From an uncultured Clostridia bacterium (lineage in GTDB: Bacteria > Bacillota > Clostridia > Christensenellales > Borkfalkiaceae), in NCBI GenBank assembly GCA_947625695.1, contig CANQPO010000017.1, forward strand, positions 1-36,620: 36,620 bases of DNA, in the 5' to 3' direction. The notes beneath the pieces were generated by a model. The model did no database searches, was not told the DNA's origin, and was given only the letters and a program-made list of their open reading frames with translations. Positions 1 through 17,605 of the stretch are shown here, piece by piece (positions within the stretch are counted from its first letter, which is position 1; each line of letters starts with the position of its first letter). Position numbers and translations under genes: made by a program.

Positions 1-2156
1 CCGTTGTTTGCATAGGGGTTGATTTCAAGATACTTCGTACCCATCTTGATGTACCAACCGCTATCGCCGTGCTTCTCTATCGTGAATTTGACTGCGTCGG
101 CGACATCTTTGGAAGTCTTAATATATCCCTCGCTTCCGCTGTCCAATTCAAGGCTGGAAGCATAGAAACGTTCGCCCTTGTGCATTGCGGAGAAGATGTA
201 ATCACCTTCTGCAGGTGCGTCAAGTGCCTTGAAGGCAAGGGCGGAGGCTGCCGCGACATTGACCTTGAACTCCACCGTTTCGGTTTCGCCGTCGAGAACG
301 ATGGTTGCAACGAGCGTGACCTCGGTATCTTCCGAAGGAAGAGAGGTAACTTTGATCTTGCCTTCCGCGATGGAGATCCAGCTGAGGGAGGTATCCTTGA
401 CTTTCCAGGTAATGGTGGTACCGAGGTCGTCCACTACGGGCAGATCGAACTCGCCTGTACTCTTGATGTCCTCAATTTCTATCTTTCCAAGCGCTTCCTT
501 GACGTTTTTGACGATCTCCGCATCGCTCAACTTCCAGTTGTGAAGTTTGAAGAAGCTGTAACCCGTGTAATCGCCGATGGTGTAGGTGACTTGAATGTCA
601 TAATTCTTTTCGCTATCGATGGGGTCGATCGTGAACTTGCCGCCATTGATGGCAACGGTGGGATTGGTTGCACCCGCGACCTTATAGGCAATGGTAACAC
701 CCTCAACGGAAGCGGGCATATCGACTTCCTTATGTGTGGCAACAAGAGAAGCGAAGTTTGCCTTTACGGCATCGTCCACTGCCTTGACCGCCGCCTTGAC
801 CTTGGCACCGTCCGTGTTCGCGCCCTCGGCATCTACCTTGGTGATGTCGCTTACAAGAACGGGCTGGATCTGGAAGCCGCCGTGATAGCCGAGGATACCC
901 ACGACATCGACGAAGTCGCCGACCTTGAGCGTATCATACAAACCTCCGAATGCTTCAAGTTCGCTTTGGGTACGTTGGATATATTTGCTTAAATACACCG
1001 CGATGGTAGTGTCGCCGCGCGCGAGTGTGACCACATTCCCTTCGGTGCCTTTGGAGCCGAGGGTCCAACTGCTCGGCTTACTACCGATTGCATTCACTTT
1101 CCATCCGGACAGGCTGACGAAGGTGCTCTCATGATAGATCGTGGAAGGTGTGCCCGCAAGAATGTCGGTATCGAGTGCATAGACCTTTTCTCTCGGATTG
1201 ATCGGCGCCTTGTCGTCCACAACTGCCGTGCCGCCGCCGTTGTTCTCCCAAAGGCCGTCGTAGTCCTTGGTAGTGTCGCCGCTGACGGTGACATGCGCGC
1301 CCTCGACGTATTTTGCAACGTCTGCCTTGTCGATCTTCACGCGGAAGCAATAGTAGCCGCTACAGAAGTCGTCGTCGATCATGTAGAAGGTCGCGTTGCC
1401 GTAGCTCTCGGACGCTTCAAACACATGAACAATGTAACCGCTGAGTTCGAGAGGATAGCCCGCTACCGTATAGTAACGGTTGACGGTTTGAAGGTGCTCA
1501 AGAATGGGAGTGACGGAGAAGGGATATTTCTGCGTAGCCTTTTCACCGTTGTAGGAGAAAGTCGCCTCAATCTCTACATCCACGAGTTCACTCCCGGGGG
1601 TGACGAGAACTTTGTTCTTCGCCTCGTTGAGCGCAATGAATTCACTGTACTCAGATTCGATCGCCCAAGAGATGGTCGCCTTCTTGCCCTGGAAAGTCGT
1701 TTCGGTGTCGAGGTCGAAATCTTCCTTGACGGCGGTCTTTCTCTGAGGGAAGCTATAATTGTCGAGGAAGGTATACACGCTGAAGCCATCGACGCGGACC
1801 GTGAAGTTTTTGGAAGCGTCCTCCGCCGAAATGGTGAGCGTGACTTCGGTTACCTGGTCCTGAATGGTGACTTTGGCATTGTAATTTTCACCGCCATCCT
1901 CGATCGCGATCGCGGCGGTGTTGCTCGACTTCCACTCTACCGTGATGGGAGAGTCTGCACTGCCGATGGTCTTGGGCAGGGTGAAGTCGGCGTCTACGAG
2001 GGTCTGGTTCTGCGGGAGAAGGTACCGCTCGATCGCCTCTTTCGCCGACACGCCGCCGTTTCCGCTGTTGTCTTTGCAGGCGACTGCGCCGAAAATAAGG
2101 CAGAGCACAGACACCACCATCAATATGGTGAGCGCTACTTTCTTCTTGAATCTCAT
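1..2156 (-). CDS. Large Ig-like/OB-like lipoprotein, C-terminus cut by window edge
   Basis: The frame is open from the ATG at 2156 to the left edge (718 codons, no stop), so the C-terminus is missing. The start follows an AAGGAG site and lies 15 bases after the upstream nuclease gene. The N-terminus MRFKKK plus a hydrophobic stretch ends in GAVAC, a lipobox with Cys27, so the protein should be lipid-anchored outside the cell. The rest looks all-beta. Several segments of the type 'VEWKSSNTAAIAI' resemble atrophied bacterial Ig-like domains, and a middle part (roughly residues 330-430, with 'LKVGDFVDVVGI') resembles the OB folds found in secreted nucleases. No catalytic motif is visible. As the last visible gene of the transporter/nuclease operon it may help bind substrate at the surface; that is inference. 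Domain names are from pattern only. Confidence 0.8.
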   Translation of the reverse strand, partial: MRFKKKVALTILMVVSVLCLIFGAVACKDNSGNGGVSAKEAIERYLLPQNQTLVDADFTLPKTIGSADSPITVEWKSSNTAAIAIEDGGENYNAKVTIQDQVTEVTLTISAEDASKNFTVRVDGFSVYTFLDNYSFPQRKTAVKEDFDLDTETTFQGKKATISWAIESEYSEFIALNEAKNKVLVTPGSELVDVEIEATFSYNGEKATQKYPFSVTPILEHLQTVNRYYTVAGYPLELSGYIVHVFEASESYGNATFYMIDDDFCSGYYCFRVKIDKADVAKYVEGAHVTVSGDTTKDYDGLWENNGGGTAVVDDKAPINPREKVYALDTDILAGTPSTIYHESTFVSLSGWKVNAIGSKPSSWTLGSKGTEGNVVTLARGDTTIAVYLSKYIQRTQSELEAFGGLYDTLKVGDFVDVVGILGYHGGFQIQPVLVSDITKVDAEGANTDGAKVKAAVKAVDDAVKANFASLVATHKEVDMPASVEGVTIAYKVAGATNPTVAINGGKFTIDPIDSEKNYDIQVTYTIGDYTGYSFFKLHNWKLSDAEIVKNVKEALGKIEIEDIKSTGEFDLPVVDDLGTTITWKVKDTSLSWISIAEGKIKVTSLPSEDTEVTLVATIVLDGETETVEFKVNVAAASALAFKALDAPAEGDYIFSAMHKGERFYASSLELDSGSEGYIKTSKDVADAVKFTIEKHGDSGWYIKMGTKYLEINPYANN

Positions 2157-2171
2157 ATCGTATCTCCTTTT

Positions 2172-3428
2172 TTATTTGATCGTAATGTTGGTATAGTCGG
2201 TAATAGTGACTTTGCCCGAGTTTGCTTCGAACTGGTAGCAACCGGAGACGGTGAGTTCCGACCCCTCTTTGATGGCGCCGCTGTAATCTGCGGGAACGGT
2301 GACCGTGAAGGTGAACGCAGGTGTGGTCCCGTCCGTCTTGGGAGCGGTCCCTTGGAACGTGAGCGTCGTGTCCTCAAGTTTTACCGAAGTCACCGTAATG
2401 TTGCCGTAACAGTTCGAACTGATCTTTTGGGTGTAGAGCGTTTTCGAAGCGTCGAACATGAGGAAATAGGAGAGCTGGGAACGCCATGTGGCGTCTTCTT
2501 TCCCCTTGAGGTCGTCGTCGAGCGCAACGCCCGAAATCTGCCAAGCCCCGTCGTGCTTCGCCAATGTGCCCACGATGTGATACATGTCCCCCACCCGCAT
2601 GTTGGAGGTGGAGTTGGTGTGCCCCGCATACAGCGTGAGCGTGTAGCCGTTGCCAGTAGCCTCGTCGTACTGCCCGATGGTGAACGAGACAGCGCCGGAA
2701 GAAGCGGTGTACTTGTCCGCAATGTAGGCATAGAGGCGGACTTTCATGTTCTCCTTGTACTTCTCGGAGCCCTCTTTGAGCTCTTTGATGGAGAGCTCGT
2801 TGATCGCGGTGTCGAACAGCGGATCGTCGAGTTTGGAGAACATGCGGAGCTCGATACTGCGGGCGAATTTCTCCGCCTTCTGAAAATAGCTGTAATAGGC
2901 GTTGTCCGCGCTCTCCTTATTGTAGGAATAGCCGTTTTCCACGAGCTCGAGGTTGAGCAGTTTGAAGTCGTCCTCGGCGGTCTTGTACCAAACGTAGCAC
3001 ATAAGGCGCGTGCCGCTGATGGAATCCTTTTCGGGAACGCCGCCGCTCGCCGATTCGATGACGATCTCGGTGGCAAGATGGAGCCGCTCGTTGGTGAAAT
3101 TGCTCGCGGCCTTCCCCCACTTCTGCACGTCGGCGGTGCTCTCGGGCGTGTCTACTCCCTGATAGCGCACCGCGATGGAACCGCCTTCCGCCAAAGCGAA
3201 ATTGGAGGTGTCGCCGTCGGTGGTGTCGCCGATCAAGGTCGCCGCGCCGATGCCGTCACTGCTCATGAGCTTTTTGCCCTCGTAACTCTTGGAGAGCTTG
3301 AGCGTCTTGGTGATCGAATCGAAGTGCTCGGTGTTGTCGGCGATGTCGGGGACTTTTTCACCGCATGACGCAAACGCCAAGCACGACGCGAGCAGTGCGG
3401 TCGCAAATACTACGAATAATTTTTTCAT
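2172..3428 (-). CDS. Secreted thermonuclease (SNase-like) lipoprotein with OB-like C-terminus
   Basis: A 418-residue predicted extracellular nuclease. A Lys-rich start and hydrophobic segment end in FASC (Cys22), a plausible lipobox. Residues about 60-190 form a staphylococcal-nuclease domain: DGDT (71-74) supplies a calcium ligand, RYQGVDTPE carries the equivalents of Arg35, Asp40 and Glu43 (Arg88, Asp93, Glu96), and GTRLMCYVW carries the Arg87 equivalent (Arg141). The catalytic set is therefore intact. Residues about 195-418 look like two beta-rich OB-type modules ('VGDMYHIVGTL'; 'EGSELTVSGCY'). The ATG at 3428 is preferred over the in-frame TTG at 3440, although neither has a strong ribosome binding site; coupling to the upstream gene, which ends at 3443, is likely. 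Family members cut DNA and RNA to 3'-phosphate products. It sits directly behind the binding protein of an ABC importer. Confidence 0.87.
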   Translation of the reverse strand: MKKLFVVFATALLASCLAFASCGEKVPDIADNTEHFDSITKTLKLSKSYEGKKLMSSDGIGAATLIGDTTDGDTSNFALAEGGSIAVRYQGVDTPESTADVQKWGKAASNFTNERLHLATEIVIESASGGVPEKDSISGTRLMCYVWYKTAEDDFKLLNLELVENGYSYNKESADNAYYSYFQKAEKFARSIELRMFSKLDDPLFDTAINELSIKELKEGSEKYKENMKVRLYAYIADKYTASSGAVSFTIGQYDEATGNGYTLTLYAGHTNSTSNMRVGDMYHIVGTLAKHDGAWQISGVALDDDLKGKEDATWRSQLSYFLMFDASKTLYTQKISSNCYGNITVTSVKLEDTTLTFQGTAPKTDGTTPAFTFTVTVPADYSGAIKEGSELTVSGCYQFEANSGKVTITDYTNITIK

Positions 3429-3442: not shown

Positions 3443-4894
3443 TTATTTACCGCCGCAATTCTTGTAAGCGTCCGCAAGCGCTCTGGTTGCGTCTTTCTGC
3501 CCGAGCAGGACGTACTGCACAACGCTCGTCATCTGCGCACGCGCCGTGGAAGAACCGACGAACGCGGGAGAGGTGAAGAAACGGTCGGTGAGAAGCTGCG
3601 CCGCATTTGCCGCCTTGGCAACGACGAGCTGTTTCCCGCTGAGCGCATCGCCCGTGTCGGGGTCTTTGCCGGTGAGGAAGGTCTTATAAGATTCGACATC
3701 GTACACATCGGTGCGCATGGGGTTGTAGCCGCTGGCCTTTGCGAACTTCGCCTGGAACTCGACGTCGAGGAGCTCTTTGATGAACTGGAAGGTCATGATT
3801 TCCTTCTCGTCGGGATTGGTGGGGTTATTCCCGCCTCTGAGCATGACAAGGGAAGGCCCCTGGCTGATGCACTGGCTATGGGTCTCGTCGATACCGGGAA
3901 TGGGAGCGACTTCGGTCGTGAAGGAAGTGCCTGCCTGGTTGCTTGCGCCGCCCGAGGAGCCGATGCAGAGCACAAGACCGCCGTCTTCGGGTCCCTTGAT
4001 GAAGAGCGCGCTCGTGTAGCTGCCGTAGATCTGCTGGGTGGTGATATAGCCTTTCTCATAATACCCTGCGAGTTCGGTGAGCCAAGCCTTTGCCTTATCG
4101 TTGTTGAAGAGGTAGTGGTTATTGGCGTCTGCGCTGGTGTAGCCGAAGTCCATCTGCTCGGACATGGTGATGAACCAGTTCGCCTCGGAGTCGTAGCCGA
4201 GAGGGGTGCACTTGGGCCACGCTGCCCGTGCCTTTTCGCAGATGTCCCAAAGTTCGTCCCACGTTGCGGGAGGCTTCGCTTTTCCGTTTTCGTCCTTATA
4301 GCCGAGTTCGATGAGCTTGTCGGGATTGTAGTACAGAAGCTCGGTCGACTTTACGAAGGGAAGGGTAATGAGCGAATTTTCATCCCCCTGATAGCCCGTG
4401 AAGTTCTTTGCATAGCCCTCGGCGAGATAGCCGGGGACAAATTTGGAGACCTCTTCCTCGGTGAAGCCGATGCGGTCGATCGTCTTGCTCTCTTCGCCGA
4501 CGGTATAGGTGTAAGATTCGGCGCTCTTCAGGTACTTGTTCATGTCTACGACCGTACCCGATTCGATGTACTGCGCAACGTGGTCCGCATAGCAATAGGC
4601 AAGATCGGGTTGGAGCCCCGCCGTGAGGTCGGAACGCACCTTGCTCAAAACCTCGTCGTACCCACCGGGCTGCGTGTGCTCGATCTTCCACCCGGGATAC
4701 TTCGCCTCAAAGGAATTGATCGCCGTATCCGTTACGGTCGCGAGATCTTGCCCCTGCGACGAATAGAACACGATCGTGTGATCGTAATCGCCGCTGCTAC
4801 TGCCACCGCCACCGCTGTCATCGCACGCACCGAGCGCAAAACATCCGGTCAGGGCAAAGCAACTTGCCAAGGCAACAGTTAAAATCTTCTTCAT
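3443..4894 (-). CDS. ABC importer solute-binding lipoprotein (family 1, UgpB-like)
   Basis: A 483-residue extracellular binding protein. The N-terminus MKKILTVALASCFALTGC has a textbook lipobox at Cys18, with a second possible one (LGAC) at Cys24, followed by a Gly/Ser spacer. The mature part has the family 1 (CUT1) pattern: 'TIVFYSSQG' first strand, 'PGWKIE', 'PDLAYCY', 'LPFVKSTELLYYNPD', 'PPATWDELWDIC', and a late 'ASGYNPMRTDVY'. The segment after 'SSGGASNQAG' matches the glycerol-3-phosphate/oligosaccharide (UgpB) branch better than maltose binding proteins. The start has AAGGAG upstream. Both permeases and the ATPase lie upstream in the same operon and a secreted nuclease lies directly downstream. 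The substrate cannot be read from sequence; sugars are usual for the family, and a nucleic-acid product is suggested only by context. Confidence 0.92.
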   Translation of the reverse strand: MKKILTVALASCFALTGCFALGACDDSGGGGSSSGDYDHTIVFYSSQGQDLATVTDTAINSFEAKYPGWKIEHTQPGGYDEVLSKVRSDLTAGLQPDLAYCYADHVAQYIESGTVVDMNKYLKSAESYTYTVGEESKTIDRIGFTEEEVSKFVPGYLAEGYAKNFTGYQGDENSLITLPFVKSTELLYYNPDKLIELGYKDENGKAKPPATWDELWDICEKARAAWPKCTPLGYDSEANWFITMSEQMDFGYTSADANNHYLFNNDKAKAWLTELAGYYEKGYITTQQIYGSYTSALFIKGPEDGGLVLCIGSSGGASNQAGTSFTTEVAPIPGIDETHSQCISQGPSLVMLRGGNNPTNPDEKEIMTFQFIKELLDVEFQAKFAKASGYNPMRTDVYDVESYKTFLTGKDPDTGDALSGKQLVVAKAANAAQLLTDRFFTSPAFVGSSTARAQMTSVVQYVLLGQKDATRALADAYKNCGGK

Positions 4895-4968: not shown

Positions 4969-5967
4969 TTAACCCTTCGTCCCGCTCTTGGATACGCCGC
5001 GCATGATGTACTTGCGGCAGAAGATGAAGAGGACAAGAAGGGGCAAACTGACCATGCAGACAGCCGCCATCTTGAGGGTATCGAGCGACGTCGTGCCGTA
5101 ATCTCCGCCGTAGAGGGAGAAGCCGTCGGGCTGAACCCTATCCACAAAGCCGCCCGTCACCCAGTTGGTGATCATCTGCCACGACTGCGTATTGACGAGG
5201 CGGGGCCAGATGTAGCTGTTCCACGTGCCGATGAAGCGGAGAAGGGTGATGGAGATGAGGGTGGGAGCGGTGAGCGGGATCATCACCTTAATGAGATAGC
5301 CCATATCGCTCAACCCGTCTACCTTTGCCGCCTGATACAGCGAGTTGGGGATCTGCATGAAGTTGTTCCGCAGAAGATAGATATAGTACACACTTACGAG
5401 GAAGGGCAGAATGAGTACCGTGTAGGAGTTGTTCATGTGCAGTTTCGCAACCGTAATGTAGTTGGAGACGGTGAACAGCTCGCCGGGGATCATCATGGTC
5501 GCAAGCATGATGGCAAAGAGAAGGTTCTTTCCCTTGAACTCCATGCGCGCCAGGGCGTAAGCCGTGATGATGATGACGACAAGCCCCAAGAGGGTGGACA
5601 GGAGCCCGACCACCAGCGTGTTGACGAGGATCTGCCCGAAAGAGGCGCTCGTACCCGTCGTAGTCGTCACCTGATGGAAAATCATCCAATAGTTCTTCCA
5701 CTGGAAGGTGTGCGGGAAGAAGGTGGGCACCGACTCGCGGAATTCCATCTCCGTTTTAAGGGAGGAGATGATCATCCAATAGAAAGGCAAAAAGGCAAGC
5801 ACGGCGCAGAGCGTCAAAAACACATAGACAAAAACTTCTTTGACGATGTGTTTTATTTTCTCTTGTTTTTGCGCTTTTTCGGAGTCAAACCCCTCGTCGC
5901 CCGCGGAGAGATCCCACTTTCCGACAACTGCCTCCGAAGCATTTTTCTTTTTGAAAATATTCGGCAT
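4969..5967 (-). CDS. ABC sugar-type permease, MalG/UgpE-like
   Basis: A 332-residue inner-membrane subunit of a CUT1 importer. A cytoplasmic N-terminal tail of about 43 residues precedes six predicted membrane helices. The cytoplasmic EAA loop, which docks on the ATPase, is at residues 211-231 (YQAAKVDGLSDMGYLIKVMIP). The C-terminus is short and basic, as in MalG. The start follows a very strong AAGGAGGAG site, 12 bases after the partner permease gene. The 74-base gap to the binding protein gene is the longest within the transporter set; it holds only that gene's AAGGAG site and no convincing terminator. Confidence 0.93.
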   Translation of the reverse strand: MPNIFKKKNASEAVVGKWDLSAGDEGFDSEKAQKQEKIKHIVKEVFVYVFLTLCAVLAFLPFYWMIISSLKTEMEFRESVPTFFPHTFQWKNYWMIFHQVTTTTGTSASFGQILVNTLVVGLLSTLLGLVVIIITAYALARMEFKGKNLLFAIMLATMMIPGELFTVSNYITVAKLHMNNSYTVLILPFLVSVYYIYLLRNNFMQIPNSLYQAAKVDGLSDMGYLIKVMIPLTAPTLISITLLRFIGTWNSYIWPRLVNTQSWQMITNWVTGGFVDRVQPDGFSLYGGDYGTTSLDTLKMAAVCMVSLPLLVLFIFCRKYIMRGVSKSGTKG

Positions 5968-5979: not shown

Positions 5980-7155
5980 TTATCTGTAGGTCGTGCGCTT
6001 TTTGGTGACCTTGTTGTTGATCCACGTGATGATCATGATGATGATAAAGAGCATCAACGATCCGGCGAACGCATAACCGGTCTGCCCGAGCTCGATGTAG
6101 TTGTAAAGATAGCCGACCATCGTGCCCATATCGTAGTCCTGACCCATGGTAACGCCGAACAGACCGACGATCGCCGAATACTGCTTCATACCGCCCATGA
6201 TACCCGTTACGAGAAGGTAGCTGATCTGGGGCATGATCATCGGCGCGGTGATGTGCCAAAGGATGGTCCAACGGCTCGCGCCGTCCACCTTCGCGGCGTC
6301 GTAGTACTGCTTGTTGATGGACTGCATCGCACTGAAGAGGATGAGTATCTTGAACGGAAGCCCCGACCATACCTCATAGATGATGGCGACGATATACTTT
6401 GCCCATGGGATGCTCAGGCTTCCTATTTGCCAATGCGGCGATGTTAGCCCCACCCAATCGACGGGAGAGATGCCGAACCAGCCGAGCACGATATTGACGA
6501 TACCCACCGTTTCGGTGTTGTTCGCCGTACCGATGATCTTGAAGAAGGTCGCAAACACGGCGCCCATTGCGAGCGCGTTGGTAAGATAGGGCAGGAAGAG
6601 CACCGTCTGGTACGCCTTCTGCACCTTTTTGATGGAATTCAGCGCCACGCTGATGAGGAGCGCAAGCAGTGTGGAAAGCGGGACGGAAATAAACGTGAGC
6701 ACCAACGTGTTCACAAGACACTGCACGAAGTCCGCGCCGCCCGTGCCCGTGTCTCCTTTCAAAACGCGGACGAAGTTATCGAAGCCCCATCCGTCAAATC
6801 TTCCCGTCATGCCCGAATATCCCTGTTTGAAGGAGTTGATGAATGCGGCAATGATGGGATAAAATGTGAATATTGCCATTAAAATGAGCGCGGGAGCAAC
6901 GAAAAGCCAACCGCTCTGCGATTTTAATCCGCGGCGGAATTTTTCTCCGCGGCTGAGTTGCGGACCTTCCGGCACAAGTTCCTCTTGCGGCTTCTTTTTG
7001 AACAGCCCGACGAAGAAGTCTTTGATTGCCGTGTACTTGTCCACAAACCAACCCTTGATGCGGGCGCCCAAATTGATAAAGTATTGAACAAACCTGTTGT
7101 GCTTTTTGGGAGGCGTTTCCGGCATCGGATCGATGTTGTCCTTATTCTCTTCCAT
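5980..7155 (-). CDS. ABC sugar-type permease, MalF/UgpA-like, with long N-terminal tail
   Basis: A 391-residue membrane subunit pairing with the MalG-like permease. It opens with an unusual cytoplasmic tail of about 80 charged residues containing amphipathic stretches ('YFINLGARIKGWFVDKYTA'), then six membrane helices from 'SGWLFVAPALILMAIF' onward. The EAA loop is at about residues 284-304 (YYDAAKVDGASRW...). The start codon overlaps the ATPase stop codon by one base (TAATG), so translation is probably coupled. UgpA/MsmF-type permeases are usually near 290-300 residues; the excess is all in the N-terminal tail, whose role is unknown. Confidence 0.93.
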   Translation of the reverse strand: MEENKDNIDPMPETPPKKHNRFVQYFINLGARIKGWFVDKYTAIKDFFVGLFKKKPQEELVPEGPQLSRGEKFRRGLKSQSGWLFVAPALILMAIFTFYPIIAAFINSFKQGYSGMTGRFDGWGFDNFVRVLKGDTGTGGADFVQCLVNTLVLTFISVPLSTLLALLISVALNSIKKVQKAYQTVLFLPYLTNALAMGAVFATFFKIIGTANNTETVGIVNIVLGWFGISPVDWVGLTSPHWQIGSLSIPWAKYIVAIIYEVWSGLPFKILILFSAMQSINKQYYDAAKVDGASRWTILWHITAPMIMPQISYLLVTGIMGGMKQYSAIVGLFGVTMGQDYDMGTMVGYLYNYIELGQTGYAFAGSLMLFIIIMIITWINNKVTKKRTTYR

Positions 7156-8228
7156 TATCTCAACCTCTCTTCCGTCTCTGCGTCAAACAGGAATAGCTTA
7201 TAGGGTTTGATATTGAATTTCAGTTGTTCTGCGTCCGCGGGGAGGGCGACGTCGCTCTCGATGATGCAGCGCACGGTCGGCTTTGTGGAGCTCTCGTGCG
7301 TGGAGACGACGGACTTGTCCCTGCCCATGACTTCGACATGGTCCAAATTGAGGGTAAACGCTCCGTTCGGGTCGTAGATAAATCCCTCGGGACGGATGCC
7401 GATAAAGACTTCGCGGTCGTCGCATTCCGCGGAGGCTACCGCCTCTTCGCCGATGTAGACCTTGCCGCCCTGCACCTTCCCCTTGAAGATGTTGATGGGA
7501 GGAGTGCCGAGGAAGTTTGCAACGAACAGGTTGTTGGGATCGTCGTAAATTTCCTGCGGCGCGCCGATCTGCTGTACGACGCCGAGCTTCATCACCACCA
7601 TCGTGTCGCAGATGCTCATCGCCTCTTCCTGATCGTGGGTGACGAACACCGTCGTGATGCCCGTGGTGCGCTGGATGCGCTTGATCTCCTCGCGCGTCTG
7701 CAGGCGGAGACGGGCGTCCAGATTGGACAGAGGCTCGTCGAGAAGCAATACGTTCGGCATTTTCACCAAGGCGCGGGCGATGGCAACACGCTGTTGCTGA
7801 CCGCCCGAAAGCTCATGCGGCTTGCGCGCCATAAGGTCCTCGATCTGCACCAATCTTGCCGCGTCGAGGGCGCGGGCGTTCCCCTCTTCCTTCTTGATGC
7901 GCATGTTGTCGAGCGGGAAGCGGATGTTCTGTTCCACCGTCATGTGGGGATACAGCGCATAGTTCTGGAACACGAGCCCGATGCCCCGCTTTTCGGCGGC
8001 AAGCGTCGTGACGTCCTGATCGTCAAAGAAGATCTTGCCGGAGGACGGGCTCTCCAGACCGCTCAACATGAAGAGGGTCGTCGATTTTCCGCAACCGCTG
8101 GGACCGAGCAAGCCGACGAGCTGGCCGGAGGGGATCTCGATGTTCATGTCCTCCACGGCGTGCACCGCGCTTCCTCCCTTTGTACGGCTGGGAAAGATCT
8201 TGGTCAAGTGCTGAATGGATATTTTCAT
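7155..8228 (-). CDS. ABC importer ATPase, UgpC/MsmK/MalK-like
   Basis: A 357-residue ATP-binding subunit with all motifs intact: Walker A GPSGCGKST (42-50), Q-loop 'VFQNYALYPHMTV', signature LSGGQQQ (140-146), Walker B VLLLDEP (160-166) with D-loop 'SNLDARLR', and switch His198 in 'VFVTHDQEEAMS'. After about residue 235 comes a C-terminal OB/TOBE-like regulatory region ('IFKGKVQGGKVYIGEE', 'FIGIRPEGF') as in MalK and UgpC. It powers the two permeases encoded next. The start lies 5 bases after the preceding membrane-protein gene, so it is not the first gene of the operon. Many Gram-positives share one such ATPase between several CUT1 systems; this one is encoded with its own permeases. Confidence 0.95.
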   Translation of the reverse strand: MKISIQHLTKIFPSRTKGGSAVHAVEDMNIEIPSGQLVGLLGPSGCGKSTTLFMLSGLESPSSGKIFFDDQDVTTLAAEKRGIGLVFQNYALYPHMTVEQNIRFPLDNMRIKKEEGNARALDAARLVQIEDLMARKPHELSGGQQQRVAIARALVKMPNVLLLDEPLSNLDARLRLQTREEIKRIQRTTGITTVFVTHDQEEAMSICDTMVVMKLGVVQQIGAPQEIYDDPNNLFVANFLGTPPINIFKGKVQGGKVYIGEEAVASAECDDREVFIGIRPEGFIYDPNGAFTLNLDHVEVMGRDKSVVSTHESSTKPTVRCIIESDVALPADAEQLKFNIKPYKLFLFDAETEERLR

Positions 8229-9842: not shown

Positions 9843-9874
9843 CTCTCTTCCTCCATAAATCTTTATCTACGCTC

Positions 9875-9904: not shown

Positions 9905-9924
9905 ACATTATCTGTCCATAGCAA

Positions 9925-10056: not shown

Positions 10057-11181
10057 TTATTTTTTCTTGCGGCGGAGCACAACAATCACGATGACCGCAA
10101 CGAGAATGGCCGCGCCGCATACGCCGCCCACGATCCCGCCGATGAGCGCGGCTTTGTTTTTCTCCCCTGTGTCTGAAGGTTTGGAGGGCTCGGGCTCCGT
10201 GGGTTCAGGCTCCGTAGGCTCGGGTTCTGTAGGCTCGGGCTCGACGGGTTTCGGGTCTGCAGGCTCGGGTTCTGTAGGCTCGGGCTCCGTGGGCTCGGGC
10301 TCGACGGATTCGGGGTCCCAAATCTGATCCGCATATTCGGGATGGTCGATGAAGGGGTTGCGGTTGTGCTGTATTTTAAACGCTTCCTCGTTGCGCGTCT
10401 TTTCGATGTCGTCCACGGGGTCGAGTTCGTTCCATTTAAGGAGCAGTTCGATCGCCTCCTCCTCGGTCCCCGCCATGACGTTGGTGAACTTCAGCGTTCC
10501 GAAATAGCTCTCCTGCCCGCTGCCGTTCGTGGAGCCGTGCACATTTTCGGCTTTGTTGTAGTGTACATACAGATACAGGACGATGCGCGCCGCGTCCCCT
10601 TTCACATTGTCGAGAGGCTCGAACACGCCGCCCGCGTGATGCCCGCCGAGTTGGGAATTGCTGCCGTCCTTCTTTTTGGAATAAACTGCGCCGCCGTTTG
10701 TGACTTCGCCGAACTTGTCGTTCCCGCGCTGACCGTTCATCTCCTTCTCGGAGGGACGGATGTGGTGCAGATCGGAGCCGCCGCCCGCTTGTCCCCAAAG
10801 CTGTCTGCCGGTACTATCCTTCGTCAGACTCTGCGGCCAAACGTGCTCGCGGTTCCATGTGCCGACCGCATTCGAACTCGCGATATATGTCGTGATCGTC
10901 TCGTGCGTGTAGAACTCGACGACGCCGTCCTCGCCGTTCAATGCGGGGTCGGTCGTTTTCGCATAGTCTCTGCAATCGCTATAGGAAGTATAATGTGTAT
11001 GCGTGGTCGTGACAAGGTCGTGGAGCTGGCCTAAAAGCTCCTCCCCGCTCGTTGCGGTAATGGGCGCGTAATAGTCCTCTTCGGCATATGCGGGAAGAAC
11101 GGTACTTCCGAACGAGAGGACGCCGCATAGCAGCAGCCCCGCAAGCGAGAGGGATAAAATTTTTGCGTGTTTCCGATGCAT
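10057..11181 (-). CDS. Surface-anchored endonuclease I family protein
   Basis: A 374-residue secreted nuclease of the endonuclease I family (EndA/Bsn), which cleaves DNA and sometimes RNA nonspecifically. A signal peptide (about 1-33, ending AYA) leads into the catalytic domain (about 44-275). Visible motifs are WNREHVWP (109-116), GGSDLHHIRP (134-143) and NGQRGNDKFG (149-158), covering the usual metal- and substrate-binding residues. A linker of repeated PEPTEPEP units (about 285-340), then 'KPSDTGE', a hydrophobic helix and a terminal RRKKK, indicates retention at the cell envelope. This is not a canonical LPxTG signal. The ATG at 11181 has GGAGAAACC upstream and is preferred over the in-frame TTG at 11214, which overlaps tdk. 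It lies 16 bases after tdk as the last gene of the deo operon. Confidence 0.92.
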   Translation of the reverse strand: MHRKHAKILSLSLAGLLLCGVLSFGSTVLPAYAEEDYYAPITATSGEELLGQLHDLVTTTHTHYTSYSDCRDYAKTTDPALNGEDGVVEFYTHETITTYIASSNAVGTWNREHVWPQSLTKDSTGRQLWGQAGGGSDLHHIRPSEKEMNGQRGNDKFGEVTNGGAVYSKKKDGSNSQLGGHHAGGVFEPLDNVKGDAARIVLYLYVHYNKAENVHGSTNGSGQESYFGTLKFTNVMAGTEEEAIELLLKWNELDPVDDIEKTRNEEAFKIQHNRNPFIDHPEYADQIWDPESVEPEPTEPEPTEPEPADPKPVEPEPTEPEPTEPEPTEPEPSKPSDTGEKNKAALIGGIVGGVCGAAILVAVIVIVVLRRKKK

Positions 11182-11197: not shown

Positions 11198-11776
11198 TTA
11201 TTTTTGCGCCGCAAGCTGTTTCAGCCAGCACTTGCGGCACATCGCGACATATCTGTCGTTGCCGCCGAGGAGGACCTGCGAGCCCTCCGTGACGATCTTC
11301 CCGTTTTCATCGATCCGCGCGTTTACCGTGGCCTTTGCCCCGCAGGTGCACACCGACTTGATTTCGCTGATGGACTCGGCGATCTCGAACAGTCGCTTGC
11401 TCCCCGGGAAGAGGTGGGTGGTGAAGTCGGTTGCGAGCCCGAAGCAGAGCACGGGGACGTCCCTTTGCATAACGAGGTCGGCGAGCTGGTCCACCTGCTT
11501 TGGGGTGAGGAACTGGCACTCGTCCACGATGATGACGTTGCGGTCGGCATACTTTTCAAGATAGAGCTTGTAGAGGTCCTCTTCCTCCCCCACCGCGATG
11601 GCGTCCTGTTGGAGCCCGATGCGGGACTTTACGACGGCGTCGCCGTCCCGCGTATCCACGGCGGGCTTTAAGAGCAGCACCTTCATGTTCCGCTCTTCGT
11701 AGTTGAACTTGGTGATGAGCGCCTGCGCCGTCTTGGAAGAGCCCATTGCCCCAAACTTGAAATACAGCTTTGCCAT
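11198..11776 (-). CDS. tdk: Thymidine kinase (type II)
   Basis: A 192-residue cytoplasmic kinase that phosphorylates thymidine (and deoxyuridine) with ATP. The P-loop region reads GAMGSSKTAQAL (9-20), and the Walker-B-like DECQFL motif lies at about residue 86. Cysteine pairs in 'CTCGAKA' and 'CRKCW' fit the structural zinc site of the type II (human TK1-like) family, and the length is typical. It begins 17 bases after pdp, with an AAGGT site. In this operon it gives imported thymidine a salvage route that competes with breakdown by the phosphorylase. Confidence 0.96.
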   Translation of the reverse strand: MAKLYFKFGAMGSSKTAQALITKFNYEERNMKVLLLKPAVDTRDGDAVVKSRIGLQQDAIAVGEEEDLYKLYLEKYADRNVIIVDECQFLTPKQVDQLADLVMQRDVPVLCFGLATDFTTHLFPGSKRLFEIAESISEIKSVCTCGAKATVNARIDENGKIVTEGSQVLLGGNDRYVAMCRKCWLKQLAAQK

Positions 11777-11793: not shown

Positions 11794-13095
11794 TTATTCG
11801 ATCACGTCGTACACGAGAGGTTCGTCTGCGGGCTTTTCCGCTTCGATGACGGTCGCCGCAAGGAGTTTTTCCTCCGCCGCCGCAAAGGAGGCGGGGTCGT
11901 TTGAGAAGAGGGTCGCGATTTCCTCCCCCTCCGAGACGAGATCGCCCGTCTTTTTGCGAAGGAGGATGCCCGCGCTGTAGTCGATGGGGTCCTCCGCCGT
12001 GTTGCGGCCCGCGCCGAGGGTGAGGCTCGCAAGCCCGTAAGCCTCGGTATCCGCCCGCACGATATATCCCCGCTTGACGCTCTTTACGGCGTGGGAATAT
12101 TTCGCCTTTGCAAAGTTTTCCGTATCTTCGATGAGCGCGGCGTTCCCGCCCTGCGCCTTGACCGTTTGGATGAGTTTTTCAAGCGCGCTGCCGTCTGCAA
12201 CCGACTGCTCGGCGAGCTTTCTGCACTCCTCGGGCGTGCCCTTGCCCGCGAGAGAGAGCATGTATGCCGCGAGGGTCAAGCACACTTCGGTGAGATCTGC
12301 GGGGCCCCTGCCCTTCAACGTCTCCACCGCCTCGATGACCTCGAGGGAGTTGCCGATGGCATTCCCCAAGGGGCGGTCCATGTTCGTGATGAGGGCGACC
12401 ATCTTTTTGCCCGCGTTCTTGCCGATGTCCACCATCAGCCGCGCGAGCTCCTTGCTCTTTTCCGCCGTCTTCATGAACGACCCGCTCCCCGTTTTGACGT
12501 CGAGCACGATGCAGTCGTCGTCGGCGGCGAGCTTTTTACCCATGATGCTCGCGGCGATGAGGGGCATGCTGTCCACTGTCGCCGTGACGTCGCGGAGGGC
12601 GTAGAGCTTTTTGTCCGCGGGCGCGAACTGCCGCGACTGCCCGACGATGGAGAGCCCGATCTTGTTGACTTGCGCGATGAATTCCTCCTCCGAAAGGGTG
12701 GTGCGGAATCCGTCGATCGCCTCGAGTTTATCCACGGTGCCGCCCGTGTGTCCGAGGCCTCTGCCGCTCATTTTGGCGACCTTCACCCCAAACGAGGCGA
12801 CGATGGGCGCGACGACGAGGCTGGTCTTGTCCCCCACGCCGCCCGTGGAGTGCTTGTCCACGCGGATGCCGTCGATGGCGGAAAAGTCGAGCCTCTCCCC
12901 CGAATCGCGCACGGCGAAGGTGAGGTCGCAGGTCTCCCGCACATTCATGCCGCGGTAGTAAATCGCCATGAGGAGGGCGGTGATCTGGTAGTCGGGAATG
13001 CTGCCGTCCGTCACCCCTTCGATGAAGAATTTGATCTCCTCGGTGGTGAGCTCTCCGCCGTCCCGTTTTTTCTTGATGATGTCGTACATTCTCAT
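11794..13095 (-). CDS. pdp: Pyrimidine-nucleoside phosphorylase
   Basis: A 433-residue enzyme of the thymidine/pyrimidine-nucleoside phosphorylase family. It splits uridine, thymidine or deoxyuridine with phosphate to the free base and (deoxy)ribose-1-phosphate. Recognisable motifs are VDKHSTGGVGDKTSL (phosphate-binding), MSGRGLGHTGGTVDKLE (family signature) and 'DVKTGSGSFM'. The length matches Gram-positive Pdp. The ATG at 13095 (MRMYDII) has AAGGAG at the right distance, and the longer upstream frame reads into the preceding gene, so it is rejected. Whether it prefers only thymidine (deoA) or all pyrimidine nucleosides cannot be decided here. Confidence 0.95.
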   Translation of the reverse strand: MRMYDIIKKKRDGGELTTEEIKFFIEGVTDGSIPDYQITALLMAIYYRGMNVRETCDLTFAVRDSGERLDFSAIDGIRVDKHSTGGVGDKTSLVVAPIVASFGVKVAKMSGRGLGHTGGTVDKLEAIDGFRTTLSEEEFIAQVNKIGLSIVGQSRQFAPADKKLYALRDVTATVDSMPLIAASIMGKKLAADDDCIVLDVKTGSGSFMKTAEKSKELARLMVDIGKNAGKKMVALITNMDRPLGNAIGNSLEVIEAVETLKGRGPADLTEVCLTLAAYMLSLAGKGTPEECRKLAEQSVADGSALEKLIQTVKAQGGNAALIEDTENFAKAKYSHAVKSVKRGYIVRADTEAYGLASLTLGAGRNTAEDPIDYSAGILLRKKTGDLVSEGEEIATLFSNDPASFAAAEEKLLAATVIEAEKPADEPLVYDVIE

Positions 13096-13120: not shown

Positions 13121-14584
13121 TCAGTTTCCCCTTCCCCCGCCCGAGATATATGCCGCCACGAGGTCGCGCGCATAGACGTTTCCCTCGAGCCGCTTTACTT
13201 CCGTGATGTGGTTGGGGGCATAGGTGGATGTGTAGCTGTCTACCACGATATAATAGATTTTATCGTCGTCCACGTCGCTTGCGCTGAGGCCGCTTGTATA
13301 GGTATGATAGTTGTCCTTTGCGGACAGGAAGTTGCTCTTTAAGAAGTTGCCCTTGATACTGCCCAAAACGATGGCGTTGTCGAAGGGAAGAAGGGAGAAG
13401 AGGTCGGCATAGGTGACGTCTCCCCCTGCAAGGTCGTAGGGACTGCGCGTCTTGAGGTAGCCGCCGCCGAGCGCGATCTCGTACTCATTGCCCCAAACCT
13501 CTGTTCCTTTCTTATAATACAGTTCGGCGACCTTGTCGGCAATGCCTGAGGAGTTCCACTTAGAGGCGTTCTTTCCGAGCACCGTCGTATAGGGGTCGCT
13601 GTCGGGGAAATATTTGTCGTAGAGCTCGTCCACGCAGGGGTCGTCCTTGAGACTGCTTCTCGCGTATTCGTTGCTCTTGACGAGTTTGGGGGTGACGGTG
13701 TATTTTCCCGTTTTTGTGTTGAAGGAGACGTCGGCGCGGCTGATCGCCTTGTTCTCGCCGCCGCCCTGCAGATGGTAGACGCCGTATTCGTCCTTGACGA
13801 TATATTGCTTGTGAGTATGCCCCTCGAAAACGAGATCGACGTAGCCGTCCGAAAGCGCGGTGTCGTAATAGGACATATCGCTGTTTTCAACGTCGCCGAC
13901 GCCCGAGGAGGAAAATCTGTCGCCGCCGTCGTGAATGGAATAGACGATGAAATCGCACCCCTCCTCTTCTCTCAGCCGCGCGGACTCCTTTTTGACGAGC
14001 GCGGTGAGCTCTCCGCCCGTTGCGAAGTGGAGGCCCGTCTGGAATTCGCCCGAGATGGAGGAAAGGCAGTCGCCGATCGCGCCGATGACGCCGATCTTGA
14101 CGCCGCTCTTTTCCACGACGACGGAGGGCTTGCAATAGCTTGCGGGCCCGCCCTGATAGGTCACGTTGATGCCGAGAAAGGGAAACTCCGCGAGCTCGCT
14201 GTTTGGATCGAGCACGGCGGGGCCCCAATCGAATTCATGGTTGCCGAGGGTCATGGAGACAAAGCCGACTTCGTTCATCCACTCCGTCATGAGCTGCCCT
14301 TGGTTGGAAGAGGATTCCACCGTCCCCTGCCACATGTCCCCCGAGGAGAGCAGAATTTCCTCGCGCGCGTCGTCTGCGTACAGATCTTTCAAATAGGTGG
14401 TGAATTCGTCCACGCCGGGCTGACCGCTTGTGTCCATGAATTTCCCGTGCAGATCGTTGACGGCAAAAAAGGAGAGCTCCGCCGTATTGCCCGAGCGCCC
14501 CGAAGGAGCGCAGCCTGCAAGCCCCGCGCCGACAAAGAGCAGGGCAAAGAAGGGAGCGAAAAATTTCAAAAGCCGTTTTTTCAT
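13121..14584 (-). CDS. Lipoprotein 5'-nucleotidase (UshA/YhcR-type metallophosphatase)
   Basis: A 487-residue extracellular enzyme predicted to remove phosphate from nucleotides so that nucleosides can enter the cell. Signal segment ends GLAGC with lipid-modified Cys25. The calcineurin-like domain has the metal and active-site motifs NDLHG (Asp44, His46), GDMWQG (82-87), GNHEFDWG (114-121) and GHTH (about 255-258). Residues from about 320 match the 5'-nucleotidase C-terminal substrate domain ('ALGGGYLKT', 'TYADLFSLLPFDNAIVLG'). The start lies 4 bases after cdd. Its position inside a nucleoside-catabolism operon supports a nucleotidase role over a general phosphodiesterase, but 2',3'-cyclic nucleotides are also possible substrates. 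Confidence 0.92.
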   Translation of the reverse strand: MKKRLLKFFAPFFALLFVGAGLAGCAPSGRSGNTAELSFFAVNDLHGKFMDTSGQPGVDEFTTYLKDLYADDAREEILLSSGDMWQGTVESSSNQGQLMTEWMNEVGFVSMTLGNHEFDWGPAVLDPNSELAEFPFLGINVTYQGGPASYCKPSVVVEKSGVKIGVIGAIGDCLSSISGEFQTGLHFATGGELTALVKKESARLREEEGCDFIVYSIHDGGDRFSSSGVGDVENSDMSYYDTALSDGYVDLVFEGHTHKQYIVKDEYGVYHLQGGGENKAISRADVSFNTKTGKYTVTPKLVKSNEYARSSLKDDPCVDELYDKYFPDSDPYTTVLGKNASKWNSSGIADKVAELYYKKGTEVWGNEYEIALGGGYLKTRSPYDLAGGDVTYADLFSLLPFDNAIVLGSIKGNFLKSNFLSAKDNYHTYTSGLSASDVDDDKIYYIVVDSYTSTYAPNHITEVKRLEGNVYARDLVAAYISGGGRGN

Positions 14585-14588: not shown

Positions 14589-14993
14589 TCAGAGGTCTTT
14601 TTCGGTGAACGAGAAGGGAAGCAGCGCTTCCAAGGTGTACGCCTCGAACTTTTCGGGGTTCCCGAGGAGAATTTTGAAATGCTTCGGGCAGAATTCGGCG
14701 ATCACCTGCCGGCAGACGCCGCAGGGCGCGCAGAAGTCGGAGGTCTCCCCCTCCTTTCCGCCCACGATGGCGAGCGCTTCGAACTCCCGCTCCCCCTCGC
14801 TCACGGCCTTGAAAAAGGCGGTGCGCTCGGCGCAGACGGTGGCGGAATACGCCGCGTTTTCGATGTTGCAGCCCGTGTAGAGTTTTCCGCTCTTTGCAAG
14901 GAGCGCCGCCCCCACGCGGAAATGGGAATAGGGCGAATAGGAACGCCCGCGCGCTTTCTGCGCCTCTTCCATCAAAGTTTTATCGTCAATCAT
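14589..14993 (-). CDS. cdd: Cytidine deaminase
   Basis: A 134-residue enzyme that deaminates cytidine and deoxycytidine to uridine and deoxyuridine. The zinc site is complete: CAERTA supplies Cys and catalytic Glu, PCGVCRQ supplies the other two cysteines, and CNIENAAY is the substrate-binding motif. This is the short homotetrameric three-cysteine form typical of Bacillota. The start (MIDDKTL) overlaps the deoB stop in an ATGA. It feeds deoxyuridine to the phosphorylase encoded two genes downstream. Confidence 0.97.
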   Translation of the reverse strand: MIDDKTLMEEAQKARGRSYSPYSHFRVGAALLAKSGKLYTGCNIENAAYSATVCAERTAFFKAVSEGEREFEALAIVGGKEGETSDFCAPCGVCRQVIAEFCPKHFKILLGNPEKFEAYTLEALLPFSFTEKDL

Positions 14994-16153
14994 TTTACAA
15001 CTTCCTTCAAAAAACTCTTGCCGCTCGTATTTTCCTGCGGAACGCCGAAGAAATCGAGCACGGTCGCGGAGATGTCCGCAAAGCTCGGGCGGATGCCGAG
15101 GTTGACGCCGCTTCTGATCTTCTGCCCGTAGATGAGCATGGGGGTATATTCGCGGGAATGGTCGGTAGACGGGGTCGCGGGGTCGCAGCCGTGGTCGGCG
15201 GTGATGAGGAGAACGTCGTCCTCCCGCATATCTTTGATGAATTCGCTCAAGAAGCCGTCGAACTCGGTCGCCGCCGCGGCATAGCCCGCAACGTCGTTCC
15301 TGTGGCCGTATTTCATGTCGAAATCGACGAGGTTGACAAAGCAAAGCCCGTTGAAATCTCTCCCCTCGATCTCCTTTGTGACCTGCATGCCGTGGGTGTT
15401 GGAGACGGTGCGGTTGCTCTCCGAAACGCCGCTGCCTGCAAAGATGTCGTAAATTTTACCCACCGAAATGGTGTCGTACCCCGCCTTTTGCAAAAGGTTG
15501 AGCATGGTGTCCGAAGGGGGCACGAGGGAAAAGTCGTGACGGTTGGAAGTGCGCGTGAAGGGATATTCGCCGCTAAAGGGACGGGCGATGACCCTGCCCA
15601 CGTTGTGGGGCGGCACGAGCATCTCCCGCGCGATCTCGCAATAGCGGTAGAGCTCTTTTACGGGCACGACGTCCTCGTGCGCGGCGATCTGGAACACGCT
15701 GTCCGCGGAGGTGTACACGATGAGCGCCCCCGTCTTTACATGTTCTTCCCCGTAGTCCTTGATGACCTCGGTGCCCGAATAGGGCTTGTTGCAGATGACC
15801 TTTCTCCCCGTCTTTTGCTCGAATTCTTCGATGACTTCCTTGGGGAAGCCGTCGGGGTAGGTGGGGAGAGGCTCGGGCGAGACGACGCCCGCGATCTCCC
15901 AATGCCCGATGGTGGTGTCCTTCCCCATCGACTTTTCCGTCATCTTTGCATAGCTCGCCTTGGGGGCGGGAACGCCGCCGCCCACGCCGTCGATGTTGAA
16001 CAGCCCGAACGCCTCAAGTTCGGGGCAGTGGAAGTTGGGATGGTTGCGGATGGCGCCGAGGGTATTGCTCCCCTCGTCATGCCAGAGGTAGGCGTCGGGG
16101 AGCTCCCCCACGCCGAAACTGTCGAGTACGATCAGAAAAAATCTCTTTGCCAC
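14990..16153 (-). CDS. deoB: Phosphopentomutase
   Basis: A 387-residue enzyme interconverting (deoxy)ribose-1-phosphate and -5-phosphate. It belongs to the alkaline-phosphatase superfamily. Metal-site residues are in 'VLDSFGVGELPD' near the N-terminus, 'ADHGCDP' and 'TDHSREYTP' near the C-terminus, and the phosphorylated threonine lies in KDTTIGHWE. The length is normal. It starts 15 bases after deoD and overlaps cdd by four bases. It links the two nucleoside phosphorylases to deoC. Confidence 0.97.
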   Translation of the reverse strand: MAKRFFLIVLDSFGVGELPDAYLWHDEGSNTLGAIRNHPNFHCPELEAFGLFNIDGVGGGVPAPKASYAKMTEKSMGKDTTIGHWEIAGVVSPEPLPTYPDGFPKEVIEEFEQKTGRKVICNKPYSGTEVIKDYGEEHVKTGALIVYTSADSVFQIAAHEDVVPVKELYRYCEIAREMLVPPHNVGRVIARPFSGEYPFTRTSNRHDFSLVPPSDTMLNLLQKAGYDTISVGKIYDIFAGSGVSESNRTVSNTHGMQVTKEIEGRDFNGLCFVNLVDFDMKYGHRNDVAGYAAAATEFDGFLSEFIKDMREDDVLLITADHGCDPATPSTDHSREYTPMLIYGQKIRSGVNLGIRPSFADISATVLDFFGVPQENTSGKSFLKEVVK

Positions 16154-16168: not shown

Positions 16169-16888
16169 TTAAGCCAATTCGAGCGCGATCTTCATCATCG
16201 CAGTGAAGGAGTTCTGCCGCTCTTCGGCGGTGGTGTTCTCCTCGGGATGGATGAAGCTGTCGCTCACGGTGCAGATGCAGAGCGCCTTCTTGCCCGCGCG
16301 GGCGGCGTTGCAGTAGAGCGCCGCGCTCTCCATCTCCACGCCGAGCACCCCCATCTTCGCCCACTGCATGCCGCTGTTCGCGTCGTCGTAGAACATGTCG
16401 GAGGAGAAGATGTTGCCCACCTTATAGCGCACGCCCGCCTCCTCGCAGAGCTCCGCCGCCCGTTTCAGAAGGCCGAAATCGGCGATGGGGCAGAAGGTGC
16501 CGGGGAGGTTGTACTGCGCGGCATAGTTGCCGTTGGTGCATGCGCCCTGCGCGAGAATGAGGTCGCGCACGTGCAGGTCCTTATCAAAGGTGCCGCAGGA
16601 ACCGACGCGGATGATCTGCTCCACGCCGTAGAAGTTGAAAAGTTCGTAAGAATAGATGCCGATGGCGGGCTGGCCCATGCCCGACGCCATGACGGACACC
16701 TTTTTGCCCTTATACGTTCCCGTAAAGCCGTTGACCCCGCGCACGTTGTTGACGAGGACGGGGTTTTCGAAGAAGTTCTCCGCAATGAACTTTGCGCGGA
16801 GAGGGTCGCCGGGCATTAAAACGGTCTTTGCAAAGTCGCCGTACTTTGCGGCGATGTGGGGAGTGGGAATGTTGGGATGTTCGCTCAT
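16169..16888 (-). CDS. deoD: Purine-nucleoside phosphorylase, DeoD type
   Basis: A 239-residue hexameric-type enzyme that splits purine (deoxy)nucleosides with phosphate to free base and (deoxy)ribose-1-phosphate. Visible family features are [15 protein letters not shown] near the N-terminus, '[14 protein letters not shown]', '[10 protein letters not shown]', '[10 protein letters not shown]' (nucleoside-binding Glu) and 'CTVSDSF' with the catalytic Asp. Its start overlaps the deoC stop (ATGA), giving tight translational coupling. Confidence 0.97.
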
Positions 16889-17544
16889 AACAGATGTTCC
16901 TCCTTGACGATTTTTACAATGCGGGAAGTGCCGAGCCGCTCTGCGCCGAGCGAAACGAAGTCCTCCGCGTCCTTGACGGAGGAAATTCCCCCCGCCGCCT
17001 TGATCTTCACGTCTTTGCCGACGTATTTTTTGAAAAGCGCCACATCCTCACGGGTCGCGCCCGCCTTGGAAAAGCCCGTGGAAGTCTTGATGAAGTCCGC
17101 CTTTGCCTCGGTGACGATGTTGCACATCTCGATCTTCTCCTCTTCGGAAAGGAGGCAGGTCTCGATGATGACCTTGAGGATCTTCCCGCCGCAGGCTTCC
17201 TTGATCGCCTTGATCTCGTCGAGAATTTTATCATGTAGCCCCGCCTTGAGGTCGCCGATGTTGATGACCATGTCGATCTCGTCCGCCCCCGCCGCTACGG
17301 CGTCGCGGGTCTCGAACACCTTCACTTCCTTGCTGTTGTAGCCGTTGGGGAAGCCGATGACGGTGCAGATGGCAAGCCTGTCGCCCGCGTACTTTTTCGC
17401 CTCGCCCACATAGCAGGGCGGGATGCACACGGACGCAGTATGATACTTGATCCCGTCGTCGATGAGCGCTTGGATGTCCTTCCAAGTCGCGGTGACGGAG
17501 AGCTGGGTGTGGTCGCATTTGCTTAAGATTTCACGAATGTCCAT
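16885..17544 (-). CDS. deoC: Deoxyribose-phosphate aldolase
   Basis: A 219-residue class I aldolase that cleaves 2-deoxyribose-5-phosphate to glyceraldehyde-3-phosphate and acetaldehyde, the final step of deoxynucleoside breakdown. The Schiff-base lysine is in DFIKTSTGF, the second active-site lysine in KIKAAGGI, and the substrate Asp is in 'EIDMVINIG'. Length is typical. It is the first gene of the operon: the start at 17544 has GAGGACAG upstream and a consensus promoter follows about 30 bases further. Confidence 0.97.
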
Positions 17545-17576
17545 TTCTGTCCTCGCTTGTATTTTGGTGCTTCTCT

Positions 17577-17605
17577 ATTATAATGCAAAAATTTTTCTTT
17601 GTCAA
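17577..17605 (-). promoter_or_regulatory. Sigma-A promoter of the deo/nuclease operon
   Basis: On the minus strand TTGACA (17605-17600) and TATAAT (17582-17577) are both perfect and 17 bases apart, giving a 5' leader of only about 25 bases before deoC. I see no clear DeoR or CytR operator around it. With such a strong core promoter, any regulation probably depends on a repressor site not evident to the eye. Confidence 0.87.

What the first reader, a model, noticed from the sequence alone, without database searches (positions are those of the whole stretch)
1..17605. Two adjacent operons form a candidate extracellular-DNA utilisation locus
Seen: a secreted SNase lipoprotein, an envelope-anchored endonuclease I, a lipoprotein 5'-nucleotidase, a full ABC importer, and then deoC, deoD, deoB, cdd, pdp and tdk, all on one strand behind two perfect sigma-A promoters. 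Known: these enzymes cover each step from DNA polymer to base plus central metabolites. Inference: this bacterium feeds on DNA (carbon, phosphate or nucleosides) through one dedicated locus, in the style of a polysaccharide utilisation locus. I know of no described system with this composition.
Basis: partly seen in the sequence, partly recalled or inferred. Interest (0 to 1): 0.78.

Follow-up and report, generated by a model that had tools for sequence, protein, structure and literature searches.

The report
Nucleic-acid feeding locus, gut Clostridia
A gut bacterium carries, side by side, genes to cut DNA outside the cell, an importer, and enzymes that break nucleosides down; the nuclease-plus-importer set recurs in related gut bacteria, so it is real, but similar DNA-degradation loci were already described in marine Izemoplasma and in mycoplasmas.

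Summary
On the minus strand lie deoC-deoD-deoB-cdd-nucleotidase-pdp-tdk-endonuclease I, then, behind a second promoter, an ABC importer with binding lipoprotein (SBP), SNase lipoprotein and a further lipoprotein running into contig C59. The refuting test failed: SNase follows the SBP in 20/20 family, 76/80 GTDB and 20/20 hand-picked Bacilli loci (sets overlap); deo genes sit beside the importer in 28/80, in tandem, divergent or downstream order. Against: none of the 20 Bacilli loci has deo genes, and 7 of 29 SNase neighbourhoods fetched in that class, all weak-scoring, lack the importer. In 151 family genomes the importer never co-occurs with a Bmp-type SBP (21 versus 42; stratified P 2.4e-4; control P 0.7). 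The SBP model's best structural matches are a dinucleotide-binding protein, tied with a UgpB; several ligand-site positions are kept. NrnA-like and SurE genes flank it. Best reading: nucleic-acid utilisation, perhaps importing dinucleotides. The claim of an undescribed kind fails: Izemoplasma 'DNA-degradation loci' and mycoplasma SNase-ABC operons are in print. New variant of a known kind. Uptake, growth and expression were not tested.

The parts
16885..17544 (-). deoC, deoxyribose-phosphate aldolase
   Evidence: TIGR00126 240.8 bits, cut-off 117.3
16169..16888 (-). deoD-type purine-nucleoside phosphorylase
   Evidence: NCBIfam, over cut-off
14990..16153 (-). deoB, phosphopentomutase (GTG start)
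   Evidence: TIGR01696 over cut-off
14589..14990 (-). cdd, cytidine deaminase
   Evidence: TIGR01354 over cut-off
13121..14584 (-). nucleotidase lipoprotein (Metallophos + 5_nucleotid_C); positional specificity unknown
   Evidence: Pfam; NCBIfam best 104 bits, far below cut-offs
11794..13095 (-). pdp, pyrimidine-nucleoside phosphorylase
   Evidence: TIGR02644 over cut-off
11198..11776 (-). tdk, thymidine kinase
   Evidence: NF003300 over cut-off
10057..11181 (-). endonuclease I with signal peptide, proline-rich linker and C-terminal membrane anchor
   Evidence: PF04231 E 6.9e-40; anchor read by eye
17577..17605 (-). promoter of the deo operon, TTGACA-17-TATAAT
9925..9953 (-). promoter of the importer operon, TTGACA-17-TATAAT
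9531..9842 (-). small membrane protein (by eye), first gene of the importer operon
8234..9544 (-). membrane protein (by eye) of unknown family; an RDD-family protein stands here in diverged relatives
   Evidence: no Pfam match over cut-off
7155..8228 (-). ABC ATPase, UgpC/MalK type
   Evidence: NF008653 356 bits, below its cut-off 432
5980..7155 (-). permease (UgpA/MalF-like)
4969..5967 (-). permease (UgpE-like)
3443..4894 (-). substrate-binding lipoprotein (SBP_bac_8), branch of UgpB and the dinucleotide-binding protein
2172..3428 (-). SNase lipoprotein; catalytic positions kept
   Evidence: PF00565; four catalytic positions kept in 109 of 109 sequences
1..2156 (-). second large lipoprotein (aBig_2), cut by the contig end; continues to C59:11432 (977 aa)

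Best explanation
A nucleic-acid utilisation locus of two adjacent operons. Surface SNase and membrane-anchored endonuclease I cut extracellular DNA (and probably RNA) into short pieces; the nucleotidase lipoprotein removes phosphates; the SBP lipoprotein hands a nucleic-acid fragment to the ABC importer (a nucleotide or dinucleotide rather than a nucleoside, in my view); inside, NrnA-like DHH phosphodiesterases and SurE, encoded just beyond the importer operon, would finish oligonucleotides and nucleotides; Cdd, DeoD and Pdp work on nucleosides; DeoB and DeoC turn the deoxyribose phosphate into glyceraldehyde-3-phosphate and acetaldehyde; Tdk salvages thymidine. Shown here: gene identity, conserved linkage, kept active sites, mutual exclusion with Bmp-type SBPs, fold of the SBP. 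Inferred: the flow of substrate, what the SBP binds, and the nutritional role.
Confidence: 0.8

Rival explanations
1. A rival for the cargo only: the importer carries free nucleosides, made outside by the nucleases and the nucleotidase; NrnA and SurE are only neighbours.
For: Mutual exclusion with Bmp-type SBPs, a family that includes nucleoside SBPs (the family's ligand recalled); PMC8289736 inferred nucleoside or nucleobase transport for its locus; a UgpE-type permease gene is needed for efficient nucleoside import in M. bovis; nucleotidase genes in 22/80 loci.
Against: The SBP belongs with phosphate-ligand proteins and keeps phosphate-contact positions; its best structural match binds a dinucleotide; genes for intracellular phosphodiesterase and nucleotidase recur beside it.
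Confidence: 0.32
2. The importer carries a sugar or glycerophosphate, and the nuclease and deo genes are chance or merely syntenic neighbours.
For: Best model matches of the transporter are Ugp/Mal components; UgpB of M. tuberculosis ties with the best structural match.
Against: SNase linkage in three sets; deo linkage in several arrangements; UgpB's glycerol-contact Glu, Arg and Trp pair are not at the aligned columns, although invariant D104 and R452 and frequent W240 stand close by, so a shift in the alignment could hide an equivalent.
Confidence: 0.07
3. The locus serves competition or biofilm control (degrading DNA of neighbours or of the matrix), nutrition being a by-product.
For: Secreted nucleases have such roles in other bacteria (recalled; titles in the listing).
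Against: Operonic union with an importer and linkage to deoxynucleoside breakdown genes.
Confidence: 0.07

Closest known systems
Izemoplasmatales 'DNA-degradation loci' (Wasmund 2021, PMC8289736; a similar cluster in X. coldseepsis zrk13, PMC8397711)
   Same: Extracellular nucleases, phosphohydrolases and an ABC transporter in one locus; SBP whose relatives lie near nucleases; the comparison with polysaccharide utilisation loci is made there; zrk13 grows better with DNA and up-regulates its cluster (passages).
   Different: Here in gut Clostridia with sporulation genes nearby on C59 (GerA, SpoIIE), joined to a deo operon with tdk; no phosphate ABC transporter and no lamin-tail protein found in the two operons.
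Mycoplasma SBP-SNase lipoprotein-ABC operon (M. agalactiae MAG_5030 to MAG_5070, PMC3585158)
   Same: SBP, SNase lipoprotein, one ATPase and two sugar-type permeases, co-transcribed; import of nucleic-acid precursors proposed in 2013.
   Different: Gene order differs (SNase before the ABC genes there, after the SBP here); common descent by sequence was not tested; no deo linkage in the passages read.
Dinucleotide-binding protein of an ABC transporter (7c0f, 7c0l and variants)
   Different: 20% identity; two of the eight differ (N81 is D, Y224 is mostly L) and Y246 is Y in 50/117 only; ligand here unknown.
UgpB / glycerophosphocholine-binding proteins (CUT1, PMC12718374)
   Same: Close relatives; phosphate-contact Tyr and Ser positions kept.
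   Different: Glycerol-contact Glu, Arg and Trp pair not at the aligned columns; Q345 (117/117) stands opposite Gly in E. coli UgpB.
Deoxynucleoside genes with a Bmp-type importer (one case seen, L232)
   Same: Same cytosolic pathway beside an importer.
   Different: Different SBP family, no surface nuclease; the two importers exclude each other in this family.

Membership tests
Izemoplasmatales-type DNA-degradation locus | several extracellular nucleases in one locus | tested here: met
   SNase lipoprotein and endonuclease I with signal peptides
Izemoplasmatales-type DNA-degradation locus | ABC transporter whose SBP relatives lie beside nucleases | tested here: met
   76/80, 20/20, 20/20
Izemoplasmatales-type DNA-degradation locus | further nucleases or phosphohydrolases | tested here: met
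   nucleotidase in the operon; NrnA-like genes and SurE next to it
Izemoplasmatales-type DNA-degradation locus | phosphate ABC transporter in the locus | tested here: not met
   none among the genes of the two operons; not every gene of the flanks was scanned
[quoted passage not shown]
   the 977-aa lipoprotein gives only aBig_2 (first 718 aa) and nothing in its last 273 aa in Pfam
Mycoplasma SBP-SNase-ABC operon | SBP, SNase lipoprotein, ATPase and two permeases together | tested here: met
Mycoplasma SBP-SNase-ABC operon | common descent with the mycoplasma importer | not tested
   six mycoplasma-like genomes fetched have an SNase but no importer gene within about 8 kb (0/6); MAG_5030-type sequences were not obtained
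Dinucleotide-binding SBP | fold and sequence kinship | tested here: met
Dinucleotide-binding SBP | ligand-site residues (the eight positions mutated in the 7c0 entries, taken from their titles) | tested here: inconclusive
   Y56 is Y in 105/117 (W 12), S127 is S and Q274 is Q in 117/117; F79 is Y and T240 is S in 117/117; N81 is D in 117/117; Y246 is Y 50, H 35, N 27; Y224 is L in 97
UgpB proper | glycerol-contact Glu, Arg and Trp pair | tested here: not met
   aligned columns hold P/A, F and A/F; residue numbers of E. coli UgpB recalled
Polysaccharide utilisation locus (SusC/SusD type) | SusC/SusD pair | tested here: not met
   no such gene among those scanned in the two operons; only the logic is alike

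The most novel reading that the evidence does not exclude
The importer is a dedicated dinucleotide/oligonucleotide ABC transporter: SNase products with phosphodiesters are bound by the SBP, taken up whole, and finished in the cytoplasm by NrnA-like exonucleases and SurE before the deo pathway. This would be a nucleic-acid counterpart of oligosaccharide-importing sugar loci, spread through gut Clostridia and Bacilli.
Probability: 0.42. Interest if true: 0.75.

Novelty: new variant of a known kind. Interest (0 to 1): 0.55.

Why it matters
Nucleic acids from shed host cells and dead microbes should be plentiful in the gut (general knowledge), yet the feeding loci in print that I found are from marine sediments and mycoplasmas. 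A conserved SBP-SNase pair gives a genomic marker for such feeders: the SNase profile matches 194 of 346 sampled genomes of the class of Anaeroplasma, and 21 of 29 neighbourhoods fetched there hold the importer. The SBP offers a simple binding test that decides between nucleoside, nucleotide and dinucleotide uptake.

Tried and rejected
Riboswitch in the importer leader: the 81-base leader folds better than shuffles (z -3.57), but Rfam gives nothing and the relatives' leaders share no predicted structure; dropped. Purine auxotrophy as the driver: no overall link with purF; in genus g1 the 5 genomes without purF all carry the SBP, but this was noticed afterwards and not tested on its own. Direct comparison with the mycoplasma operon: the six mycoplasma-like SNases fetched are not beside ABC genes. 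A first adjacency count (SNase within 600 bases in 44/80) was an error of measure, because stop-to-stop frames overlap; corrected. The change counts of the SBP tree treat loci with short flanks as a state of their own and so overstate the number of events; I use the tree only to say that linkage occurs on more than one branch. A Foldseek listing against the PDB was not obtained; only the VIA-align second look ran. Literature searches that found no described gut form: (open-licence PMC library only).
Full report
What is there. The window is contig C17 of a 1.89 Mb, 93-contig genome (81.6% complete by the tool's estimate). On its minus strand lie two runs of genes. Run 1: deoC, deoD, deoB, cdd, a nucleotidase lipoprotein, pdp, tdk and an anchored endonuclease I (17544 to 10057). 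Run 2: a small membrane protein, a membrane protein of unknown family, a UgpC/MalK-type ATPase, two permeases, an SBP lipoprotein, an SNase lipoprotein and a second large lipoprotein (9842 to 1, then on into contig C59). Domain calls are; signal peptides, lipoboxes and membrane helices were read by eye. Each run has its own 12-of-12 promoter. C59 shares 77 exact bases with the window's left end, and on it two NrnA-like DHH genes and surE, overlapping one another by four bases, run towards the end of run 2. The NrnA match is 238 bits against a cut-off of 350, so 'NrnA-like' is all that is claimed; SurE passes TIGR00087. Germination and sporulation genes (GerA, SpoIIE) lie further along C59.

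Is it more than chance? A protein search finds the SNase lipoprotein in 21 of 151 genomes of the family, and PF00565 also in 21 of 151; 20 are common, G066 is only in the first list, G149 only in the second. In the first list the SBP lies next to it in 20 of 20 fetched loci and in the window. G149's SNase match (23.1 bits) is not beside this SBP. With the SBP alignment, 526 matched stretches (two peptide patterns, so a protein can count twice) encode relatives in named GTDB genomes; the best 80 loci were kept. SNase follows the SBP in 76 of these 80; the exceptions are L092, L095 and L118, and L114, where the contig ends soon after the SBP. In the class of Anaeroplasma (Bacilli in GTDB, recalled) the SNase profile matches 194 of 346 genomes. 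I fetched 29 neighbourhoods: 20 chosen by hand among matches down to E 1e-27, all 20 with the SBP-SNase pair; and 9 small genomes with weaker matches, of which 1 has the importer, 7 do not (six with TGA inside the gene, hence mycoplasma-like, and G516), and 1 is cut by the contig end (G563). Nine loci occur in two of the three sets.

The neighbours. At least one deo-set gene lies beside the importer in 13 of 20 family loci (one, L040, is a phosphorylase-superfamily protein of doubtful kind) and in 28 of 80 GTDB loci, or 26 of the 57 with at least 8 kb before the SBP; two or more such genes in 21 of 80; none in 20 Bacilli loci. Arrangements in the 80: tandem 14, divergent 6, downstream 7 (one, L095, lacks the SNase), both 1. 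On the SBP tree the tandem form stands on two well-separated branches and the divergent and downstream forms mostly on others. DHH genes occur in 31, SurE in 28, nucleotidase in 22 and endonuclease I in 21 of 80. In Bacilli, DHH genes occur in 8 of 20 loci; in L211, L212 and L214 two of them follow the SNase gene or genes on the same strand. Control: 15 hand-picked regions around Bmp-type SBPs of the same family hold deo genes in 1, nucleotidase in 1, and endonuclease I, DHH or SurE in 0, by the same method.

A swap of importers. Among 151 family genomes, 21 have the SNase importer and 42 a Bmp SBP (PF02608); none has both, where 5.4 would be expected within genera (exact stratified P 2.4e-4). 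A control SBP family, PF13407, overlaps in 13 against 12.7 expected. Five genera hold both kinds, never together. Genomes are incomplete and related, so the P value is a guide only, and only one Bmp region in 15 has deo genes near it.

How it most likely works. Shown: the genes, their linkage, kept active sites, the exclusion of Bmp, the SBP fold. Inferred: surface nucleases make fragments; the nucleotidase trims phosphates; the SBP and importer take up fragments; NrnA-like enzymes and SurE reduce them to nucleosides; Cdd, DeoD, Pdp, DeoB and DeoC yield bases, glyceraldehyde-3-phosphate and acetaldehyde; Tdk salvages thymidine. Whether the cargo is nucleoside, nucleotide or dinucleotide is open. 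I lean to a phosphate-bearing fragment, but the M. bovis work (PMC12838404, passages), where a UgpE-type permease gene is needed for efficient nucleoside import, is good support for the nucleoside reading.

What is known. PMC8289736 (section 11 in full and passages) describes Izemoplasmatales loci with nucleases, phosphohydrolases, ABC and phosphate transporters, infers nucleoside or nucleobase transport from SBP neighbourhoods, and draws the comparison with polysaccharide utilisation loci. PMC8397711 (passages) reports a DNA-degradation cluster with thermonuclease and ABC transporters, up-regulated with DNA. PMC10470597 (passages) reports a locus with NrnA and ABC transporters. PMC3585158 and PMC9740415 (passages) describe the mycoplasma nuclease-ABC operons. 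Two features listed for the Izemoplasma loci (phosphate transporter, lamin-tail protein) were not found here, so I do not file it as a member; it works like one. Searches for a printed account of the gut form found none, within an open-licence library only.

Noticed in passing
window 9840-9920, minus strand: Leader of the importer operon folds into a GC-rich hairpin better than shuffles (z -3.57) but has no Rfam match and no structure shared with relatives.
   Followed up: yes
L003 (contig C59) 7208-8317, minus strand: One protein fuses a deoxynucleotidase-like domain (NT5C) with a guanylate kinase domain, close to the locus.
   Followed up: no
L096 (12534-14838), also L099, L100, L117, L122, L123: A second ABC importer (ATPase or permease hits, and in L096 an SBP_bac_1 lipoprotein) lies just downstream of the locus.
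   Followed up: partly
family loci of genus g1: L025 and the window versus L032, L033, L037, L041, L043, L044: Within one genus the same site (after endonuclease I) holds importers whose SBPs are only about 34-40% identical and whose first genes differ (membrane pair or RDD protein), as if one importer had replaced the other in place.
   Followed up: partly
window 17864-20410 plus, 23812-29722 minus: Large proteins with List_Bact repeats and a BspA-type leucine-rich repeat region next to the locus.
   Followed up: no
L218-L223: Six mycoplasma-like genomes (TGA inside the gene) carry an SNase lipoprotein; in L218 it lies beside a class-II fructose-bisphosphate aldolase gene, with look-alikes by eye in L219, L221 and L223, and no ABC importer near it.
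   Followed up: partly
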